Assembly (NCBI GenBank): GCA_003554025.1
Contig: PWFC01000039.1
Coordinates: 62,001-126,000, forward strand
DNA: 64,000 bases
From: Mollicutes bacterium
GTDB lineage: Bacteria; Bacillota_I; Bacilli_A; Izemoplasmatales; Izemoplasmataceae
Direction of reading: 5' to 3'
The notes beneath the pieces were generated by a model that saw only the letters and a list, made by a program, of their open reading frames with translations, made no database searches and was not told where the DNA came from. The position numbers and the translations under genes were made by a program. Shown piece by piece: positions 30,235-46,503 of this stretch. Position 1 is the stretch's first letter, and the number at the start of each line of letters is the position of its first letter.

Positions 30235-30864
30235 ATGAACAAAAAACTCGCATTGTTGAGCACCATCGTCTTTTTCGGCGCCCTTTGGGGCGTGCTTGAA
30301 GCCACACTAGGCTATGTTTTGCATTTGATTCCCGTTCCTTTTTTGGCCGGAAGCATCATGTTCCCCTTAGCGACTCTTGTCCTGCTTTACGCATACAAGC
30401 ACACGCAATCTAGGAAAGCGCTCTTGGCCGTAGGTGTCATCGCGGCTTCCATCAAAGCGCTCAATTTCTTCATGCCCATGAACCACTGGGGCATCATCAA
30501 TCCGATGATTTCCATCGTGCTCGAGTCGCTCATGGTCGTTGCGCTCGCAAACTTTTTGGTCTCAAGAAACCTCAAGAAGCAAGCGCTTGGTTTCCTCACC
30601 GCATCGGTGGCCTGGCGCGGCGCATACCTTGTTTGGTTCGCCGTGCAGTTCGCGGCCACCGGATTCCTCGCCGAGCAAATCGGCTCTTTTGGCAACGTGT
30701 TGACGTTTGCCGTGTTCCAAGGGCTTTTCAGCGGCGCTTTGGCGTTTGCGCTTTATAAAGGTTTCGAGCTCCTTGAGACACGCAGCGCCTTAAGCCTTCG
30801 CATCCATCCCTTAGGCGCGACCTTCATGCTGACACTTGCCACCGTTTTGACCGTTATATTGTAA
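30235..30864 (+). CDS. Polytopic membrane protein, candidate purine-pathway transporter component
   Basis: 209 residues with six hydrophobic segments and little between them. GALWGVLEATLGYVLH at the N-terminus is the most conserved-looking part. The size and helix number resemble ECF-transporter substrate-binding (S) proteins, but I do not recognise a family. It sits three bases after the set 1 Mo subunit and is the only integral membrane protein in the purine block, so it is the only visible candidate for import or export of a substrate. AGGAG precedes the ATG. Confidence 0.6.
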   Translation: MNKKLALLSTIVFFGALWGVLEATLGYVLHLIPVPFLAGSIMFPLATLVLLYAYKHTQSRKALLAVGVIAASIKALNFFMPMNHWGIINPMISIVLESLMVVALANFLVSRNLKKQALGFLTASVAWRGAYLVWFAVQFAATGFLAEQIGSFGNVLTFAVFQGLFSGALAFALYKGFELLETRSALSLRIHPLGATFMLTLATVLTVIL

Positions 30865-30927: not shown

Positions 30928-31794
30928 ATGACAATGGAAGACGAAACTCTCTACGAACGGTTACTCCGTTATAAAAAAGAAGGCAAAGACGCCGTGTTGG
31001 TCACGGCGGTCGAGAAAAAGGGCGAAGGTCCGGTCGCCATCGGCATCAAGATGCTCGTGAGCGAAGACGACGAAGCGATCGGCACCGTCGGCGGCGGCGC
31101 GCTTGAATACCACGCCCGCGAACGGTGCAAGGACATCATCAAGAAGCGGGAAAGCAAACTTGAACGCTATTTGCTCAACGAAGAGAAAATCGAAGTCGAC
31201 AACCGTTCCGACATGACGACCCTGCCGATGAAATGCGGCGGCGTCGTGACCCTTTTTTACGAATTCATCGGCGTCAAAAACCATATTTATCTTTTCGGCG
31301 CCGGGCATGTCTCAAAGGCCTTGGGACACGTCTTGGACACCATGGATTTTCACCTGACCGTCATCGACGACCGGAAAGAAGTCTTAGACGTTTACCCTTA
31401 CGGCAACAGGCTTGTCGAAAAGCCGTTTGTGCAATTCATCGAAGAAGAAGGCATTAAAGACGGCAGTTTCGTGGTCGTTTGCACGCCGAAACACGCCAAC
31501 GATTACCACGTCATCAACAAAATCCTAGAACTTGGTCTCTCGCCCAAATACATGGGCATGCTTTGTTCGTCGGCCAAATTGAAGGATTATTTGAAAAAGA
31601 CGTACGACACCTTCGGCGAAGACGTCGATTTGAGCAATTTCTACGCGCCGATCGGCCTCGATACGGGCGGAGGAAGCCCCGAAGAGATCGCCGTTTCGAT
31701 CAGCTCCGAAATCCTAGCCGTCTCGCACGGAAAAAAAGGCCATCTTCACATGAGGGAAACCGAAAATGGTTCACATCGTTACTGGGAAGATTAA
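30928..31794 (+). CDS. XdhC/CoxI-family molybdenum hydroxylase maturation protein
   Basis: 288 residues. N-terminal domain with TVGGGALE and MKCGGVV; then a Rossmann domain with LFGAGHVSKAL (~residue 122); then GLDTGGGSPEEIAVSISSEI at the C-terminus. XdhC proteins bind the Mo cofactor, promote its sulfuration and insert it in xanthine dehydrogenase. Lies between two hydroxylase sets and can serve both. No strong ribosome binding site: AGGA is 13 bases before ATG 30928, and ATG 30934 is an alternative. Confidence 0.88.
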   Translation: MTMEDETLYERLLRYKKEGKDAVLVTAVEKKGEGPVAIGIKMLVSEDDEAIGTVGGGALEYHARERCKDIIKKRESKLERYLLNEEKIEVDNRSDMTTLPMKCGGVVTLFYEFIGVKNHIYLFGAGHVSKALGHVLDTMDFHLTVIDDRKEVLDVYPYGNRLVEKPFVQFIEEEGIKDGSFVVVCTPKHANDYHVINKILELGLSPKYMGMLCSSAKLKDYLKKTYDTFGEDVDLSNFYAPIGLDTGGGSPEEIAVSISSEILAVSHGKKGHLHMRETENGSHRYWED

Positions 31795-32257
31795 CGACCG
31801 CAAAACCACCCGCATGATCGCGCTTTACGAGCGCCTCGGCGGCGATGGGTTCGTGTCGTTAAAGACCATGAAAAACGACACCGTCCACAGCTACACCGCC
31901 CAACGTCTTTCGACCGGCGAACAAAGACTTTTGATCATCCGGGATGCCTACATGCCCGAAGATTTCAACAGCAAAGAAAACATCGGACCCTACCATTTCG
32001 AGAAAAACTGTGTCGAATGGATCGAATCGACGTTGAAGACGCTCGTTGAAGAGCGAGTCGAACCGCTCTTTTTGGACGAAGTCGGAATTTTGGAAATGCA
32101 CGACCAAGGATTCGCCAACACGGTGAAGGCCATGGTCGATTCCGGACTCGATGTGTGTTTTGCGGTACGTGAAACGTTGCTTCCGGACTTCTTGAAACAA
32201 TACGCCATCACCGATTATCGCCTCATTGAGGAGGAAAACGATGGATTTAGCCATTAA
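31766..32257 (+). CDS. THEP1-like P-loop NTPase with altered Walker A
   Basis: 163 residues. VTGKINDRKTT at the N-terminus takes the place of a P-loop (Arg where GxxxxGK[T/S] has its second Gly) and LFLDEVGILEM is a good Walker B, as in the THEP1/NTPase_1 family of nucleoside triphosphatases. Overlaps the XdhC gene by 29 bases and the next gene by 17, so it belongs to the operon. Small NTPases of this type occur in hydroxylase gene clusters, but their task is not established; a role in cofactor insertion is a guess. Confidence 0.6.
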   Translation: MVHIVTGKINDRKTTRMIALYERLGGDGFVSLKTMKNDTVHSYTAQRLSTGEQRLLIIRDAYMPEDFNSKENIGPYHFEKNCVEWIESTLKTLVEERVEPLFLDEVGILEMHDQGFANTVKAMVDSGLDVCFAVRETLLPDFLKQYAITDYRLIEEENDGFSH

Positions 32258-33548
32258 AAACGGCGACGTGTTTCTAAAAGGCGCCTTTCAGAAGACAAAC
32301 GTCTACGTCAAAGACGGGCGCATCGCCGAAATCACCGATCAAAACCTTGACGCCGAAGAAACATACGACGCTAAGGGCGCCATGGTATTGCCGGGTCTCA
32401 TCGACCCGCATGTCCATTTCGCCTTAGATTTGGGCGCGTTCGTTTCGGTCGACGATTTTTCCGCAGGTTCGAAAGCCGCCGCTTACGGCGGCGTCACGAC
32501 GTTTATCGATTTTTTAGACCCCGTCGACAACGCCGACGATTTGAAACGCGCGTTTGAAACGCGCTTGAAGGAAGCAAAAACGTCTCATCTCGACTACGCC
32601 TTTCACGCCACAATCAAAAATCCGAAAGGCGACCTTGAAACGTTTGTGCAAACGATGAAGGATTTGGGCATTCCCACGCTCAAATTTTTCACAACCTATT
32701 CCGAATCGAACAGGCGCACCTACGACAAAGACATCAAAGAACTTCTCCGACTTTCAAAAAAACACAACATCACGTTGCTCGCGCATATTGAAAACGACGA
32801 CATGATCACCATAAAGGACGAATACACCCACGAGGATTTGCCCAAGAGCCGTCCTTCAAACAGCGAAACCACAGAAGCTTTGAAACTCGCAGGTTTCGTA
32901 GAAGAAACGAACGGCACGCTCTACATGGTGCACCTAAGCAGCGGCGAAACCCTGCGGGCTCTCAAAAAGCATTATCCGCATCTTTTGAACAAGCGCTTCA
33001 TCGTCGAAAGCTGTCCGCAATATTTTGCTTTCAACGACGCTTCGCTTCGTGGCGAAAAAGGCAAACTCTTTACCTTCGCTCCGCCTTTGCGCAGCGAAGC
33101 AGACCGCAAAGCGCTTTGGGACCATTTTGACGATGTCCACACCATCGGCACCGACCATTGCGCCTTCATGAAAGCGGACAAACAAGCCTCCTCGCTAAAA
33201 GACATGCCTCTTGGCATTGGCGGCGTCGAACACTCGTTTTCCATTTTATATCGCCATTTCAAGAATTCGCTCATCGAAAAAATGAGCCTGAACAACGCCC
33301 GTGTGCATCATCTAACGCCGCGCAAAGGCGATATCGCGGTAGGCGCCGACGCCGATTTGGCAATCTTCGAAGCGAAAGACACCATAATTAAGAACAACCA
33401 CGCCGCTTCCGATTATTCGGTGTATGAAGGCCAACCTGCGGGCGCCGTTTTAAAGGCCACCATCGCCCGGGGTGCGTTCATTGTCAAAGACGGTGCGTTT
33501 TACCCCCAAAAAGGACACTTTCTCAAAAGGAGTGAAAGAAATGCCTAA
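32241..33548 (+). CDS. hydA: Dihydropyrimidinase/hydantoinase-family cyclic amidohydrolase
   Basis: 435 residues of the binuclear-zinc hydantoinase family: His57/His59 in DPHVHF, the carboxylated Lys148 in PTLKFFTTY, then His in LLAHIEND and MVHLSS, and Asp in GTDHC. It opens cyclic ureides (dihydropyrimidines, hydantoins, possibly a reduced purine ring product). In described anaerobic purine clusters the partner is HyuA/HydA. ATG 32241 has GAGGAGG upstream and starts inside the previous gene. Confidence 0.88.
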   Translation: MDLAIKNGDVFLKGAFQKTNVYVKDGRIAEITDQNLDAEETYDAKGAMVLPGLIDPHVHFALDLGAFVSVDDFSAGSKAAAYGGVTTFIDFLDPVDNADDLKRAFETRLKEAKTSHLDYAFHATIKNPKGDLETFVQTMKDLGIPTLKFFTTYSESNRRTYDKDIKELLRLSKKHNITLLAHIENDDMITIKDEYTHEDLPKSRPSNSETTEALKLAGFVEETNGTLYMVHLSSGETLRALKKHYPHLLNKRFIVESCPQYFAFNDASLRGEKGKLFTFAPPLRSEADRKALWDHFDDVHTIGTDHCAFMKADKQASSLKDMPLGIGGVEHSFSILYRHFKNSLIEKMSLNNARVHHLTPRKGDIAVGADADLAIFEAKDTIIKNNHAASDYSVYEGQPAGAVLKATIARGAFIVKDGAFYPQKGHFLKRSERNA

Positions 33549-39346: not shown

Positions 39347-39364
39347 CAAAAGAAGGTGGAATGC

Positions 39365-41074
39365 ATGAACGACAAAGAACGAATGAAAATTGCAAGAGGC
39401 GTAAAAAAAGCGGCGTTGGTTTTGAAAAACGCCCGCATCGTCAACGTGTTCACAAAGGAACTTGAAGATGGCGACATCGCGATTCAAGACGGTCTTATCG
39501 TCGGCATCGGAAAATACCGCGGAAAAGAAGAAGTCGACCTTCAAGGAAGCTATGTCGCGCCCGGATTCATCGACGGGCACGTGCACATCGAATCTTCCAT
39601 GGTGACCCCGCCTCAGTTTGCGAACATCGTCCTTCCCAAGGGCACGACCACGATCATCGCCGACCCTCATGAAATCGCCAACGTCAGCGGCAAAGAAGGC
39701 ATCCGTTACATGCTTCGAAGCAGCAAGGCTTCTTTCCTCGATGTCTTCATGATGATTCCTTCAAGCGTACCGGCCACCACGTTCGAAACGGCGGGCGCAA
39801 ATGTGAGCGTCGAAGACATCGCCGAATTGGCGCTTGAAGACGGCGTTTTGGGTCTAGGCGAAGTGATGAACTACCCCGATGTTTTAAAGGGAGAACAGAC
39901 AATCCACGACAAAATACGGCTCATGCAACCAAGGCCCATCGACGGACACGCCCCATCGCTTAAGGGCAACGATTTGAACGCTTATGCGACCGCAGGCGTG
40001 CAAACCGACCACGAATGTTCAACGGTCGAAGAAATGCTCGACCGCGTTCGCCGCGGCATGTATGTGCATCTGCGAGAAGGTTCGGTGACCCGTAACGTCC
40101 GCACTCTTTTAAAGGGTGTCACCGACAAAAACACCGAACGTCTGCTTTTTTGCACCGACGACAAGCATCCCGAAGACATCAAGGCCGAAGGCCACATCAA
40201 TTATAACGTCAACCTCGCCATCGACCACGGCATCGACCCCATCACCGCCATCAAAATGGCGACCTTGAACGCGGCAACTTGTTACAAACTCCCCCGCCAT
40301 GGCGCGATCGCGCCATCTTATTACGCGGATTTGGTGGTGTTTGACAGCCTTGAAAAGATTGAGCCCAAAGCCGTCTACAAACGCGGAACGCTCGTCGCCA
40401 AAAACAACGAACCCCTAATCGACGCGCCCACCATCAAAGACGCAACGGTCAGCGACACCGTCCACGTCGACTTAGACCGATTGGACTTCACGCTCAAGCT
40501 CAAAAAGAACACCGTGAAAATCATCGGCCTCATCAAAAACAACATCACGACAAAACGTCTGAACGAGACCGTCCTCATCGAAGACGGAGCGTATAAAAAC
40601 GACCCCGAACAAGACCTATTAAAGCTTGCCGTCGTTGAACGCCACAAAGGCAGCGGCGATTACGGTTTGGCTTTGGTCAAAGGATTCGGGCTCAAAAACG
40701 GCGCCTTGGCGATGACCATCGCCCATGATTCTCACAACCTCGTCGTTGTCGGCGATTCCGATAAAGCGATGCGTCTTGCCACCGAGAAAATCGTCGAAAT
40801 ATCGGGCGGCATCGTCCTTGTCAAAGACGGAGAAGTAGAAGACGCGCTTCAGCTAGAAATCGGAGGCATCATGACGACCAAACCGGCGTCAAAGGTCGCC
40901 GAAACCTTGAATCGCATGAAAGAAAAAGTCCGCGCGATGGGACTGAACCCCGACATCGACGACCCCTTCATCCAGCTCGCGTTCCTCTCGCTCCCCGTCA
41001 TTCCGGATTTGAAGTTGACCGACCAAGGACTCTTCGACGTCAACGCCTTTAAAATCGTACCGATAGAAGATTAA
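39365..41074 (+). CDS. ade: Adenine deaminase
   Basis: 569 residues, normal for the Ade family: N-terminal cap, GFIDGHVHIESSM metal motif, ADPHEIANVSG, and a C-terminal adenine deaminase domain. It converts adenine to hypoxanthine, the substrate for the xanthine dehydrogenase encoded upstream. Start ATG 39365 has AAGGTGG upstream; GTG 39356 overlaps that site. Confidence 0.95.
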   Translation: MNDKERMKIARGVKKAALVLKNARIVNVFTKELEDGDIAIQDGLIVGIGKYRGKEEVDLQGSYVAPGFIDGHVHIESSMVTPPQFANIVLPKGTTTIIADPHEIANVSGKEGIRYMLRSSKASFLDVFMMIPSSVPATTFETAGANVSVEDIAELALEDGVLGLGEVMNYPDVLKGEQTIHDKIRLMQPRPIDGHAPSLKGNDLNAYATAGVQTDHECSTVEEMLDRVRRGMYVHLREGSVTRNVRTLLKGVTDKNTERLLFCTDDKHPEDIKAEGHINYNVNLAIDHGIDPITAIKMATLNAATCYKLPRHGAIAPSYYADLVVFDSLEKIEPKAVYKRGTLVAKNNEPLIDAPTIKDATVSDTVHVDLDRLDFTLKLKKNTVKIIGLIKNNITTKRLNETVLIEDGAYKNDPEQDLLKLAVVERHKGSGDYGLALVKGFGLKNGALAMTIAHDSHNLVVVGDSDKAMRLATEKIVEISGGIVLVKDGEVEDALQLEIGGIMTTKPASKVAETLNRMKEKVRAMGLNPDIDDPFIQLAFLSLPVIPDLKLTDQGLFDVNAFKIVPIED

Positions 41075-41089
41075 AGAAAGCGGGATACC

Positions 41090-42340
41090 ATGGAATTCTT
41101 GACCCATTACTCTTGCACTTTGTGCGGGAGCGAATACACCCCTCCCGTAGATTTTTACACATGCCCAAAATGCGGAGAAAAAGGCATTTTGGACATCCAT
41201 TACGATTACGAACGGTTGAAAAAAACGCTGAACAAGCAATATTTTGCGGACAACACCGATTACAGCATGTGGCGCTACGAACCGCTAATGAGCGTTTCAA
41301 AAGCCCACATCGACAAAACGCTTCGCGTTGGCTGGACGCCCCATTACAAAAGCAATCAGCTTGCGAAACGTTTAAAAATGGACGCCCTTTACATCAAAGA
41401 CGAAGGGCTCAACCCGACCGGTTCCCTCAAAGACCGAGCTTCGGCCGTGGCCGTTTTGAAAGCGATGGAAAACGACAACGTCACCATCGCCTGTTCTTCG
41501 ACGGGCAACGCCGCATCGAGTTTGGCCGGAAACGCCGCACGCATGGGGCTTAAGACTGTCATTTTTGTCCCCGAACGCGCTCCAATCGGCAAACTTGCGC
41601 AGTTGCTTGCCTACGGCGCCGACGTCATCAGCGTCGAGGGCGACTACAAAGCGGCCTTTCAACTTTCGAAAGCGGCCATCGACCATTTCGGCTGGTACAA
41701 TCGCAACGCCGCGATCAATCCTCATATGGTCGAAGGCAAAAAGACGGTCGCATACGAAATCGCCGAACAATTGGATTTCGACGTGCCCGACTGGGTGGTC
41801 GTCAGCGTTGGCGACGGTTGCACCATCGCCGGGGTGTACAAAGGGTTTTACGACCTTTTCGCGATCGGCATCACCGATCGAATCCCGAAAATTCTCGGCG
41901 TTCAAAGCGAAGGGTGCGCGCCCTTCTACGAAGCGGCCAAAGAGGGACGCGAACTCATCGAGACCGACGAAAACACCATCGCCGACAGCATCGCCGTAGG
42001 CATTCCGAGAAACCCCACCAAGGCGTTAAACGCTGTAAAACGTTCCGGTGGACAATGGATCACCGTCACCGACGAACAAATCTTGGAATCGATCGTCTTG
42101 CTTGGAAAAGAAGAAGGCGTCTTCGCCGAACCGGCCGCCGCCGCGTCGATGGCGGGGCTTTTGGAGGCTCTTGAACAAAACGTCGTCTCAAGGAGAGAAC
42201 GCGTCTCGGTGATCGTAACCGGCAACGGCCTCAAAGACACGAAATCGATGGAACATTACGGAATCAAACCAAAACGGCTGAAACCCGATTTGGATCTGTT
42301 GATAGAGTACATGCAAAACAACGAAGGAGGACGAACATGA
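41090..42340 (+). CDS. Threonine synthase-like PLP enzyme with N-terminal zinc ribbon
   Basis: 416 residues, fold-type II PLP. A zinc ribbon (CTLCGS and CPKCG) at residues 9-27 precedes the catalytic domain with PLP Lys114 in GSLKDRAS and VSVGDGCT as the phosphate loop. Sequence alone would say threonine synthase, but no threonine gene is near, and it sits between ade and a second PLP enzyme in a purine-breakdown operon, in the slot of YgeX (diaminopropionate ammonia-lyase, also fold type II). It probably eliminates or deaminates an amino-acid product of ring opening. Overlaps the next gene by four bases. Confidence 0.75.
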   Translation: MEFLTHYSCTLCGSEYTPPVDFYTCPKCGEKGILDIHYDYERLKKTLNKQYFADNTDYSMWRYEPLMSVSKAHIDKTLRVGWTPHYKSNQLAKRLKMDALYIKDEGLNPTGSLKDRASAVAVLKAMENDNVTIACSSTGNAASSLAGNAARMGLKTVIFVPERAPIGKLAQLLAYGADVISVEGDYKAAFQLSKAAIDHFGWYNRNAAINPHMVEGKKTVAYEIAEQLDFDVPDWVVVSVGDGCTIAGVYKGFYDLFAIGITDRIPKILGVQSEGCAPFYEAAKEGRELIETDENTIADSIAVGIPRNPTKALNAVKRSGGQWITVTDEQILESIVLLGKEEGVFAEPAAAASMAGLLEALEQNVVSRRERVSVIVTGNGLKDTKSMEHYGIKPKRLKPDLDLLIEYMQNNEGGRT

Positions 42341-43695
42341 AAAAAAGCACCCTGGGTCCCACCTATGAGGAGATGCTGCACCCAAGCAAGTTGGACGCCT
42401 CGTTGCGCAAGCAAGCGCTTGCCGCCAAAAAGGACGAACTGGACCCGATGAACTTGTTCAACATCACTTGGAAAAAGGAAAACAACGAAGTCAACAAAGT
42501 CGTGCTTCCTAAGGCTTTGACCGGCGTCGACGCAAACATTGTCGTGATGCTCGGCAAAGATTTTCCTAGCGGTTCCCATAAAGTCGGACCCGCGTATTCG
42601 ACCTTGATCGAAGGCTATGTCGATGGCGACATCGTCCCCGGCAAACACACCATTCTTGGGCCTTCTACCGGGAATTTTGGCATTGGCGTTTCCTACATCT
42701 GCAACTTGATGGATTACGAAGCCGTCGTCATCATGCCCGACAACATGAGCAAAGAACGTTACGACCGCATCAAGGGGTACGGGGCAAAACTCGATTTGAC
42801 CCCGGGAACGGAATCGGACGTCATCTTGACGCTTGAGAAAACGCACAAGCTTTCCAAAGACCCCAAAAACGTCGCCTTGGCGCAATTCGAATTGATGCCG
42901 AATTACCGTTTTCACCGCCACGTTACGGGATATAGCGCCATCGAAGCGGTTAAGGGCGTCGGCAACGGCCGCATCGCCTGCTTCGCATCCGCTCCCGGAA
43001 GCGCGGGAACTTTGGCCGCGGGCGATCAGATCAAAAAAGAGTACCCCGAGGCGAAAATCGCCGCCTTAGAACCTTACGAATGCTCGACCCTCATGGACGG
43101 CGGGCGCGGCCAACACCGTATTGAAGGGATTGGCGACAAGATGTGCACGTTGATCCATAACGTGCTCAACACCGATTTCATCGCCCTTGTGAGCGATGAG
43201 GACGCCGTACGCGGGTTGAAAGTGTTGCGCGATGGCGTCGACGTTTTGGCCGAGTTTGGCGTCGAGAAGAAACAATTGAAAGCCATGCGCGATTTCTTCG
43301 GCGTCTCCGGCGTGTGCAACATCCTAGGCGCGATCAAAATGGCGAAATATTTGAAACTAGGCCCCGAAGACAACGTCGTCACCGTCGCGACCGACGGATT
43401 CGACCGTTACGACAGCGTGATGGAAGATTTGGAAAACCGTTATCTTGAAACCGAAGACTTCGTCTTGCGCCGTTGGTTCCGCGACATTTTCTTAAAAGCC
43501 GACACGGAAAACGTCGCCGATTACCGAAGCGCCGCGCAAAAAGAAAAACTGTTCAAGCAAAAAGAAAACGACTGGCTCAAGTTCGGCTACGAACAAGCCT
43601 ACCTCGACAAAATGAAGTCGATGGATTTCTGGGACGAGGAATACGAGAAAATCTACGAGTACAACGAAAAAATTCAAGCGCTACGAAACCATTAG
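42337..43695 (+). CDS. Fold-type-II PLP enzyme of the purine cluster (cysteine-synthase superfamily)
   Basis: 452 residues. [11 protein letters not shown] gives the PLP Lys82; GPSTGNFG is the substrate-carboxylate/Asn loop and [13 protein letters not shown] the phosphate loop. It belongs to the cysteine synthase/threonine dehydratase superfamily but is longer than cysteine synthase (~310) and has a charged C-terminal extension. I cannot assign the reaction; paired with the preceding PLP enzyme it may perform beta-elimination or replacement on 2,3-diaminopropionate-like compounds. Upstream coupling by ATGA overlap. Confidence 0.7.
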
Positions 43696-44944: not shown

Positions 44945-45928
44945 ATGAAACCACTTTTTAAAGGAAAACACTTCATCACCCTCGAAGATTGGAAAACCGA
45001 AGAAATTGAAAAACTTTTGGAGGTAAGCGCCGACCTCAAAGAAAAGTTCAAGAACAACGAAATCACCGATTATTTGAAAAACAAGACGTCATTTTTGATG
45101 TTCTTTGAACAATCCACCCGCACCCGCAATTCCATGGAAGCCGGCATCGCGCAACTAGGCGGCCACGCAAACTTCCTAGATACCTCAACCATGCAAATCT
45201 CGCACGGCGAAACCGGCAAAGACACCGCCATCATCCTTTCAAGCTACGGACACGGCATCGCCGCGCGCAACTGTTTTTGGCGGCAAGGCAACAAGTTCTT
45301 GCGCGAGATGGCCGACAACGCCAGCGTCCCCGTGATGAACTTGCAATGCGACCTTTACCATCCGATGCAAGGCCTTGCCGACCTCATGACCATCAAAGAG
45401 GTCAAAAAGAAGACCGAAAACGTCAAGGTCTCGATCATCTGGGCTTATGCGACGAGCCACAAAAAGCCCATCAGCGTCCCTCTTACGCAGGCGCTGTTGT
45501 TCCCGCGTTTCGGCATGGAGGTAGTCCTCGCGCATCCTAAAGGCTATGAACTGCCCGAGTGGGTTTTGGAAAAAGCCCGCAAGAACGCCGAAGAAAACGG
45601 CGGCACCTTCAAAGTCACCAACGACATGGAAGAAGCGTATAAAGACGCCGACATCGTCATCCCCAAAAACTGGGGAAGCTGGGTCAGCAACCAAAGCGAC
45701 GACGTCATCGACGACATCTTAGAATCGAACAAGCACTGGAAATGCACCGAAAAAATGATGGCGCTTGCCAAGCCCGATGCGAATTATATGCACGCCCTTC
45801 CCGCCGACCGCGGCAACGAAGTGGAAGATTCCGTCATCGACGGCAAGCAATCGATCGTTTATCAAGAAGCCGAAAATCGTCTCCATACCGCCAAAGCGGT
45901 CATGGCCATGACGATGGGCGACAAGTAA
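44945..45928 (+). CDS. ygeW: YgeW-type knotted carbamoyltransferase
   Basis: 327 residues: carbamoyl-phosphate motif STRTRNS (~57-63), HPMQGLADL (~139-147) and HALPADRGNEV near the C-terminus. It belongs to the aspartate/ornithine carbamoyltransferase superfamily, YgeW branch. In purine degradation it is expected to run in the catabolic direction, moving a carbamoyl group from a ureido compound to phosphate so that carbamate kinase can make ATP. It is shorter than E. coli YgeW (about 396). No carbamate kinase gene is in this window. Last gene of the plus-strand block. Confidence 0.9.
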   Translation: MKPLFKGKHFITLEDWKTEEIEKLLEVSADLKEKFKNNEITDYLKNKTSFLMFFEQSTRTRNSMEAGIAQLGGHANFLDTSTMQISHGETGKDTAIILSSYGHGIAARNCFWRQGNKFLREMADNASVPVMNLQCDLYHPMQGLADLMTIKEVKKKTENVKVSIIWAYATSHKKPISVPLTQALLFPRFGMEVVLAHPKGYELPEWVLEKARKNAEENGGTFKVTNDMEEAYKDADIVIPKNWGSWVSNQSDDVIDDILESNKHWKCTEKMMALAKPDANYMHALPADRGNEVEDSVIDGKQSIVYQEAENRLHTAKAVMAMTMGDK

Positions 45929-45933
45929 GACAC

Positions 45934-46016
45934 AAAAAAGCGCTCCTCGCGGGCTGAACCCCAACATTGGATGCGATTTCCAATACAACGGGTAAAGCTC
46001 ACGGGAGCGCTTTTTT
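45934..46016. terminator. Long nested bidirectional terminator/structured element
   Basis: A 13-bp outer stem (AAAAAAGCGCTCC / GGAGCGCTTTTTT) encloses ~57 bases that fold further: CGCGGGCT with AGCTCACG (one mismatch, one wobble), CCC with GGG, and a hairpin ATTGGA/TCCAAT. It lies between convergent ygeW and guaD. Confidence 0.75.
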
Positions 46017-46503
46017 AATAGATTTCTTTGCCTAAGGCTTCGTATTCTCGGAAGAGTTTCAAACAGTCTTCGCGGAAATCTTCGCGGATTTCCAAAATGC
46101 TTGTGTCTTTGCAGCCGTCTTCGATGTACTTATAGATGAAGTCGTCGCGAAAGCCGATTTCATCGGCGTCTTCGGGGCGGCAACCGTAGACGATGGTTTT
46201 GATGTTCGACCAGATGATGGCGCCTAAACACATGGGACAGGGGTAGGCGGTGGTGTAGAGAATGCATCCGCTCAGATCGTGGTTGCGAATCTTTTTCGAC
46301 GCTTCGCGAATGGCGTTGATTTCGGCGTGGGCGGTGGCGTCGTGGTCGCCCAAAACCGAATTCGAGGTTACCGAAAGCACTTCGCCTTGTTCGTCGATGA
46401 CCGCGGCGCCGAAAGGGCCGCCCAAGTCTTCGTTCATGGTTTGCTTGGCGCGTTCAATGGCCAATTGCATAATCTTTTTGTCTGTAATAGTAATGCGTAT
46501 CAC
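46015..46503 (-). CDS. guaD: Guanine deaminase
   Basis: ~160 residues of the cytidine-deaminase fold: HAEINAIREA (zinc His and catalytic Glu) and PCPMCLGAI (zinc Cys pair), plus EIGFRDDFIYKYI, which matches the Bacillus GuaD C-terminal part. It converts guanine to xanthine, feeding xanthine dehydrogenase, and converges on the purine operon. Start uncertain: the first in-frame usual codon is GTG 46503, but it lies inside the ribosome binding site GAGGTG; an ATT at 46494 is six bases after that site (GAGGTG-ATACGC-ATT), the same spacing as pyrG. Confidence 0.88.
   Translation of the reverse strand: MIRITITDKKIMQLAIERAKQTMNEDLGGPFGAAVIDEQGEVLSVTSNSVLGDHDATAHAEINAIREASKKIRNHDLSGCILYTTAYPCPMCLGAIIWSNIKTIVYGCRPEDADEIGFRDDFIYKYIEDGCKDTSILEIREDFREDCLKLFREYEALGKEIY

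What the first reader, a model, noticed from the sequence alone, without database searches (positions are those of the whole stretch)
41090..43695. Two fold-type-II PLP enzymes in the slot of YgeX
The threonine-synthase-like protein (Lys114) and the longer cysteine-synthase-superfamily protein (Lys82) overlap by four bases and sit between ade and ygeY. YgeX, the diaminopropionate ammonia-lyase of known clusters, is also fold type II but is not recognisable here. They could split one reaction in two or release ammonia from a different C3 amino acid.
Basis: partly seen in the sequence, partly recalled or inferred. Interest (0 to 1): 0.6.

Follow-up and report, generated by a model that had tools for sequence, protein, structure and literature searches.

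The report
Two-enzyme replacement in purine breakdown
In a wall-less bacterium that can break down purines without oxygen, the known last enzyme of the uric-acid pathway is missing; two neighbouring enzymes that databases call threonine synthase and cysteine synthase take its place. The same pair recurs in uric-acid gene clusters across many phyla, so an overlooked version of this pathway seems to be widespread.

Summary
Two fold-type-II PLP genes (PLP1, Lys114; PLP2, Lys82) overlap by 4 bp between ade and ygeY, in a complete reductive urate/purine cluster with no YgeX in the genome. PLP1 is not threonine synthase. It forms its own clade. The residues that bind O-phosphohomoserine in ThrC are replaced (R160 position never Arg in 65/65; N188 to an invariant Asp), and the genome has no homoserine dehydrogenase. 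PLP2 is an unnamed sister family of cysteine synthase. In the order, PLP2 tracks YgeY (42 genomes both, 1 PLP2 only, 0 YgeY only, 18 neither). In 392 genomes of the phylum, 27 of 28 PLP2 genomes have PLP1 nearby; the 28th has a real YgeX next to PLP2 instead. Haloarchaeal uric-acid plasmid clusters carry PLP1 without PLP2. PLP1 is therefore most likely an isofunctional replacement of YgeX (2,3-diaminopropionate ammonia-lyase). PLP2 is a second pathway enzyme of unproven reaction, not a half of YgeX, because it also partners true YgeX. Published transcriptomes of two relatives show this cluster induced, by thiosulfate and by nucleic acids; the first lists a 'threonine synthase' and a 'cysteine synthase'. 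No enzyme activity is shown for either protein.

The parts
41090..42340 (+). PLP1: threonine-synthase-like fold-II PLP enzyme with N-terminal Zn-ribbon-like Cys motif; proposed 2,3-diaminopropionate ammonia-lyase replacing YgeX
   Evidence: own clade, PLP Lys114, invariant R205, D242, D299-S300, R307; swaps with YgeX beside PLP2
42337..43695 (+). PLP2: cysteine-synthase-superfamily (beta-substituted alanine synthase) enzyme with C-terminal helical extension; second PLP enzyme of the pathway, substrate unproven
   Evidence: 72-78% identical in most of the order, PLP Lys82, invariant S110-T-G-N113, Q183, C249, H274, S324; D267 in 96/97
42337..42340 (+). 4-bp overlap of PLP1 stop and PLP2 start (translational coupling likely)
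   Evidence: in most loci the two genes lie from a short overlap to a few tens of bp apart
39356..41074 (+). ade, adenine deaminase
   Evidence: TIGR01178 638 bits
43706..44926 (+). ygeY, M20 ureido hydrolase of the reductive urate pathway
   Evidence: TIGR03526 708.6 bits; role from PMC12507026
44945..45928 (+). carbamoyltransferase in the ygeW slot (327 aa, OTC-like)
   Evidence: TIGR00658 270 bits, TIGR03316 194.7 bits, both below cut-off
32241..33548 (+). hyuA-like hydantoinase
   Evidence: TIGR02033 253.8 bits
33538..34845 (+). ssnA-like aminohydrolase
   Evidence: TIGR03314 362 bits
34842..35930 (+). uacX-like dihydroorotate-dehydrogenase-family reductase with ferredoxin domain
   Evidence: TIGR01037 150.7 bits plus ferredoxin-type matches; UacX as named in PMC12507026
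35927..39346 (+). molybdenum hydroxylase subunits (702-aa large, 2Fe-2S, FAD) - candidate urate-to-yanthine reductase
   Evidence: ORFs; conserved order
46015..46503 (-). guanine-deaminase-like nucleobase deaminase
   Evidence: PF00383; conserved at cluster end in relatives

Best explanation
The locus is a reductive (anaerobic) urate/purine degradation cluster in which YgeX has been replaced by a two-gene module. PLP1 is a threonine-synthase-derived enzyme that has lost the phosphate-binding site. It most likely catalyses the terminal step, alpha,beta-elimination of ammonia from 2,3-diaminopropionate to aminoacrylate and hence pyruvate plus 2 NH3, with acidic and polar residues (D242, D299, S300) placed where ThrC binds phosphate. 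PLP2 is a beta-substituted-alanine-type enzyme that works on the same C3 pool (diaminopropionate, or its ureido precursor, or one stereoisomer of it) by beta-elimination or beta-replacement. It is needed beside either lyase and is not half of the lyase. Shown here: gene content, conservation, co-occurrence, slot swapping, altered active sites, absence of homoserine dehydrogenase. Inferred: the reaction of PLP1. Only suggested: the reaction of PLP2. My estimates: PLP1 is the YgeX replacement about 0.65; PLP2 uses diaminopropionate or a direct derivative about 0.5.
For: (1) Cluster genes match the biochemically defined pathway of Li et al. 2025, PMC12507026. (2) No YgeX in the genome or in 60 relatives. 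(3) PLP2 vs YgeY across 61 genomes: 42 both, 1, 0, 18 neither. (4) In 392 genomes PLP1 in 27, all among the 28 with PLP2 and all on the same contig; the exception carries PLP2-YgeX-ygeY-ygeW-ssnA. (5) Genomes with stand-alone PLP2 mostly have PLP1 elsewhere, or YgeX, plus SsnA. (6) Haloarchaeal plasmid clusters with SsnA-like, LLM, UacY, M20 and XDH genes have PLP1 as the PLP enzyme. (7) PLP1 forms a clade apart from ThrC of the same genomes; its ThrC phosphate ligands are replaced in 65/65. (8) No homoserine dehydrogenase in the window genome. (9) Relative zrk13 (G027, identical genome length) up-regulates a cluster with XDH, both deaminases, OTC, 'cysteine synthase', 'threonine synthase' with thiosulfate; zrk29 (G040) up-regulates its cluster with DNA/RNA.
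Against: No activity data for either protein. PLP1 keeps ThrC's Thr before the Gly-Asn loop and lacks the Asp found there in YgeX, so action on D-diaminopropionate, the isomer expected from a D-hydantoinase, is uncertain. Acididesulfobacillus carries PLP1, PLP2 and YgeX together, so PLP1 is not always a simple replacement. E. coli runs the pathway without PLP2, so PLP2's need is unexplained. The zrk13 cluster was induced by thiosulfate, not by purines, and assigning 'threonine/cysteine synthase' there to PLP1/PLP2 rests on cluster content and position. The roles of the ThrC phosphate ligands are recalled, not read here.
Confidence: 0.62

Rival explanations
1. PLP2 is a diaminopropionate racemase: the D-specific hydantoinase makes D-diaminopropionate, PLP2 epimerises it, and PLP1 eliminates ammonia from the L form.
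For: PLP1 has a ThrC-type site without the Asp that YgeX has before its Gly-Asn; YgeX acts on both isomers (PMC12507026), which would explain why YgeX of E. coli needs no partner; racemases exist in fold type II.
Against: PLP2 also pairs with YgeX proteins that keep that Asp (L213 and others). PLP2 keeps the Gln and loop layout of cysteine synthase, not of serine racemase.
Confidence: 0.15
2. PLP2 is a diaminopropionate-using cysteine or S-sulfocysteine synthase: beta-replacement with sulfide or thiosulfate joins purine breakdown to cysteine supply.
For: Sister to CysK in the tree, closest folds are beta-cyanoalanine and cysteine synthases; in zrk13 thiosulfate stimulates growth and induces a cluster containing a 'cysteine synthase'.
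Against: The genome has another CysK-like gene. The substrate loop differs (GSVKDR to GSHKVG, GAGF to GDK). No consistent sulfur genes nearby.
Confidence: 0.15
3. PLP1 and PLP2 are ordinary threonine and cysteine synthases carried along in the operon.
For: PLP1 passes the TIGR00260 thrC cut-off (228 vs 167 bits) and would be annotated so; PLP2's best NCBIfam match is cysKM.
Against: Separate clades, lost phosphate ligands, no homoserine dehydrogenase, true ThrC in addition in many PLP1 genomes; PLP2 is far below all CysK cut-offs (133.7 vs 344); near-perfect co-occurrence with the pathway.
Confidence: 0.05
4. PLP1 and PLP2 form one hetero-oligomeric lyase, each needed for a half reaction.
For: 4-bp overlap and tight pairing.
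Against: PLP1 without PLP2 in haloarchaeal clusters, PLP2 with YgeX and no PLP1 in Clostridium and G299; both keep complete PLP sites.
Confidence: 0.08

Closest known systems
YgeX, 2,3-diaminopropionate ammonia-lyase (TIGR03528)
   Same: Fold type II PLP enzyme in the same cluster slot next to ygeY/ygeW; same expected substrate
   Different: PLP1 is only 22% identical to E. coli YgeX, lies in a different clade, has an N-terminal Zn-ribbon-like domain and lacks the TDGNHG Asp
Threonine synthase ThrC (TIGR00260, PDB 6cgq, 1uim, 2d1f)
   Same: PLP1 scores above the family cut-off and shares the fold and the KDR motif
   Different: Phosphate-site residues S155, R160 and N188 (Thermus numbering) replaced by A/G, M/L/T/Q/S and Asp; own signature GWYxRN, VGDG, ADSIxxxxPR; genome lacks homoserine dehydrogenase
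Cysteine synthase CysK/CysM and beta-cyanoalanine synthase
   Same: PLP2 shares the fold, S/T-G-N loop, Gln and active-site Ser; best PDB matches
   Different: 23-30% identity; GSHKVG in place of GSVKDR, EGIGDK in place of QGIGAG; about 90-residue C-terminal helical extension; 100% supported separate clade
Reductive urate pathway clusters of E. coli and C. difficile (Li et al. 2025, PMC12507026)
   Same: xdh, ssnA, hyuA, UacX, ygeY and a carbamoyltransferase; pathway expected to end at diaminopropionate
   Different: No ygeX; PLP1 plus PLP2 instead; carbamoyltransferase is the short OTC-like form; UacX is combined with a carbamoyltransferase

Membership tests
YgeX / 2,3-diaminopropionate ammonia-lyase | match to TIGR03528 above cut-off | tested here: not met
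   PLP1: TIGR03528 not among its best 25 NCBIfam matches, PRK08206 at 71.9 vs cut-off 276; PLP2 21.3 vs 532; no match in the genome
YgeX / 2,3-diaminopropionate ammonia-lyase | Asp directly before the Gly-Asn loop (TDGNHG) | tested here: not met
   PLP1 SSTGNA, PLP2 PSTGNF; all seven YgeX or YgeX-like sequences compared keep the Asp
YgeX / 2,3-diaminopropionate ammonia-lyase | pyruvate and ammonia from diaminopropionate | not testable with these tools
   needs enzyme assay
YgeX / 2,3-diaminopropionate ammonia-lyase | cluster position with ygeY/ygeW (works like, not member of) | tested here: met
   PLP1 and YgeX interchange beside PLP2 and ygeY in L215 vs L213
Threonine synthase | TIGR00260 score above cut-off | tested here: met
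   228.4 vs 167.1 bits
Threonine synthase | O-phosphohomoserine phosphate ligands (Ser155, Arg160, Asn188 in Thermus ThrC; roles from memory) | tested here: not met
   A/G, never Arg, and a near-invariant Asp in 65 PLP1 sequences
Threonine synthase | homoserine pathway in the genome | tested here: not met
   no PF00742 in a 91.6% complete genome; control rings in 14/14
Cysteine synthase | TIGR01136/01139 above cut-off | tested here: not met
   PLP2 133.7 vs 344 and 129 vs 351
Cysteine synthase | GSVKDR lysine motif | tested here: not met
   GSHKVG; Lys82, Val83 and Gly84 invariant in 97/97
Reductive urate degradation cluster | ssnA with xdh, YgfK/UacX, hyuA, ygeY, YgeW/UacY | tested here: met
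   definition from PMC12507026
Reductive urate degradation cluster | ygeX as terminal gene | tested here: not met

The most novel reading that the evidence does not exclude
A second, widespread ending of anaerobic purine breakdown: PLP1 (a threonine-synthase descendant) is a new diaminopropionate ammonia-lyase family, and PLP2 founds a new PLP enzyme family that adds a reaction not in the published pathway (for example a diaminopropionate beta-replacement that makes cysteine, or a racemisation), in bacteria of several phyla, with PLP1 also in haloarchaea.
Probability: 0.45. Interest if true: 0.75.

Novelty: new variant of a known kind. Interest (0 to 1): 0.62.

Why it matters
The reductive urate pathway was worked out biochemically only in 2025, and its distribution was drawn by counting any PF00291 neighbour of ssnA as YgeX (PMC12507026). 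That count would hide this variant. If PLP1 is the lyase, the pathway's range (Izemoplasmatales, Erysipelotrichaceae, Peptococcaceae, Moorella, Chloroflexota, Acidobacteriota, Elusimicrobiota, Thermotogota, haloarchaea) rests largely on a different terminal enzyme, now annotated as threonine synthase; such calls inflate predictions of threonine prototrophy. PLP2 gives a conserved, assayable PLP family whose reaction would add a missing step or branch. It also gives a concrete route for how DNA-feeding wall-less sediment bacteria use purines.

Tried and rejected
PLP2 as OrtB (2-amino-4-ketopentanoate thiolase): no OrtB match in PLP2's lists; only the haloarchaeal PLP1 shows a weak one (67.7 vs 550). 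PLP2 as half of YgeX: rejected by PLP2-YgeX pairs. Neighbours of stand-alone PLP2 genes showed no shared theme, but their genomes mostly had PLP1 or YgeX and SsnA elsewhere. Literature on ThrC substrate residues and on Fn1055 was not in the open library. The tree is a quick search; the placement of long branches (TrpB, DcyD, YgeX) relative to each other is not trusted.

Full report
What is there. The window belongs to a 1.5-Mb genome (G000, 91.6% complete) in the order of the Izemoplasma-type wall-less bacteria. Two relatives were identified by exact genome length: G027 (1,958,905 bp) is Xianfuyuplasma coldseepsis zrk13 and G040 (1,808,583 bp) is Hujiaoplasma nucleasis zrk29. The two genes overlap by 4 bp and lie in an array of genes on one strand: xdh large subunit, a 209-aa membrane protein, xdhC, an NTPase, hyuA, ssnA, uacX, a second molybdenum hydroxylase (three subunits), ade, PLP1, PLP2, ygeY, a carbamoyltransferase, and a divergent deaminase. 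This is the gene set of the reductive urate pathway of Li et al. 2025 (PMC12507026), in its ferredoxin-type UacX form, except that ygeX is missing. Those authors scored YgeX in gene neighbourhoods simply as any PF00291 protein.

Conservation. In 24 relatives from two families the order ade-PLP1-PLP2-ygeY-carbamoyltransferase is unbroken wherever the contig reaches. PLP2 is 72-78% identical and PLP1 55-70% in most (94% and 85% in the closest relative). Across 61 genomes PLP2 (either subfamily) and YgeY occur together in 42, PLP2 alone in one 69% complete genome, YgeY alone in none, neither in 18 (Fisher p about 1e-14, not corrected for relatedness). YgeX is absent from all 61.

Wider distribution. 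One scan of named genomes found close PLP2 relatives in Moorella, Acididesulfobacillus, Symbiobacterium, Erysipelotrichaceae, Chloroflexota, Acidobacteriota, Elusimicrobiota, Thermotogota and others, many within urate clusters. In 392 genomes drawn from the phylum, PLP1 occurs in 27, every one of them among the 28 with PLP2 and on the same contig. The 28th genome, G299, has a YgeX (499 bits) where PLP1 would be: xdh-PLP2-YgeX-ygeY-ygeW-ssnA-ygfK. Clostridium algoriphilum and Clostridium sp. ZS2-4 have YgeX with PLP2 and no PLP1; Acididesulfobacillus has PLP1-PLP2-YgeX in a row. Genomes where PLP2 stands alone on its contig mostly carry PLP1, recognised by its motifs, and SsnA elsewhere. Symbiobacterium (PLP2, no PLP1, no SsnA match) is an exception. 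Plasmids of Haloterrigena and Haloarcula carry PLP1 with SsnA-like hydrolases, the LLM reductase, a D-aminoacylase and an M20 hydrolase, and no PLP2; a Haladaptatus plasmid has PLP1 with the D-aminoacylase, the M20 hydrolase and a dehydratase-like PLP gene. Whether the haloarchaeal chromosomes carry PLP2 was not tested.

What PLP1 is not. PLP1 passes the thrC model and would be named threonine synthase, but it forms a clade with the cluster-borne homologues and the haloarchaeal ones (SH-aLRT 98), apart from ThrC of the same genomes. Aligned with the Thermus, Mycobacterium and Bacillus enzymes, the ThrC segment NSxNPxRxEGQKT reads RNAxxNPxxxEGKKT, VGNAGN reads VGDG, and ATAIxIGNP reads ADSIxxxxPR. 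In 65 PLP1 sequences the R160 position is never Arg and the N188 position is Asp in at least 97%. That S155, R160 and N188 bind the substrate phosphate is from memory of the Thermus structure; the numbering was checked on the alignment. The genome has no homoserine dehydrogenase. A phosphate pocket that turns acidic fits a substrate with a second amino group, which is how I read it; no ligand was modelled.

What PLP2 is. PLP2 is a 100%-supported clade next to CysK. It has a confident predicted fold (pLDDT 86.7, pTM 0.90) closest to beta-cyanoalanine and cysteine synthases (TM about 0.8 by target), plus about 90 residues of C-terminal helices. It keeps the PLP lysine, the S-T-G-N loop, the Gln and the Ser typical of cysteine synthases, but has its own GSHKVG and EGIGDK motifs and an invariant Cys249 and His274 (Asp267 in 96 of 97). 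No curated model covers it. It looks catalytically complete, so it is not a dead subunit. PLP1 also models well (pLDDT 88.7, pTM 0.89).

Expression. [quoted passage not shown] In zrk29 a cluster of Fe-S, xanthine dehydrogenase, NTPase, dihydropyrimidinase and adenine deaminase genes is up-regulated by DNA plus RNA. The same genomes show the PLP1-PLP2 array at the expected place. Assigning those 'synthases' to PLP1 and PLP2 is my inference from gene content and position; the papers did not connect them to urate breakdown.

Conclusion. PLP1 most likely replaces YgeX as the diaminopropionate ammonia-lyase. PLP2 is a second, general member of the pathway in most non-enteric lineages examined; its reaction is the open question. 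It pairs with either lyase, which argues against a split reaction and against a racemase needed only by PLP1. A beta-elimination or beta-replacement on the same C3 amino acid pool is the reading I favour, weakly.

Noticed in passing
L119, L122, L123 (haloarchaeal plasmids): Urate-type clusters with PLP1 annotated thrC, D-aminoacylase and M20 hydrolase; L119 and L123 also have SsnA-like hydrolases and the LLM flavin reductase, L119 XDH and L123 a nucleobase symporter. The reductive urate pathway probably extends to haloarchaea.
   Followed up: partly
L120, L121 (Rhizobium and Bosea plasmids): The long PLP2 subfamily occurs on conjugative plasmids of legume-associated bacteria, each within about 8 kb of an M20 hydrolase; in Bosea also near RidA and a YgeX-like gene (38%). 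Possibly breakdown of plant diaminopropionate derivatives.
   Followed up: no
window 30235-30864 and 31766-32257: A 209-aa membrane protein and a PF03266 NTPase are conserved members of the purine cluster in relatives, with no assigned role in the pathway.
   Followed up: no
window 44945-45928: The carbamoyltransferase is a 327-aa OTC-like protein rather than the knotted YgeW; the related genome G031 carries a 400-aa YgeW beside the long PLP2 form, downstream of a separate regulator gene, instead.
   Followed up: partly
L110 (Desulforamulus aquiferis): PLP1, PLP2 and ygeY are each split over several frames: pseudogenes or assembly errors.
   Followed up: no
G027 (zrk13) cluster, L222: A published thiosulfate response induced this purine cluster rather than sulfur genes; the reason is unknown.
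   Followed up: partly
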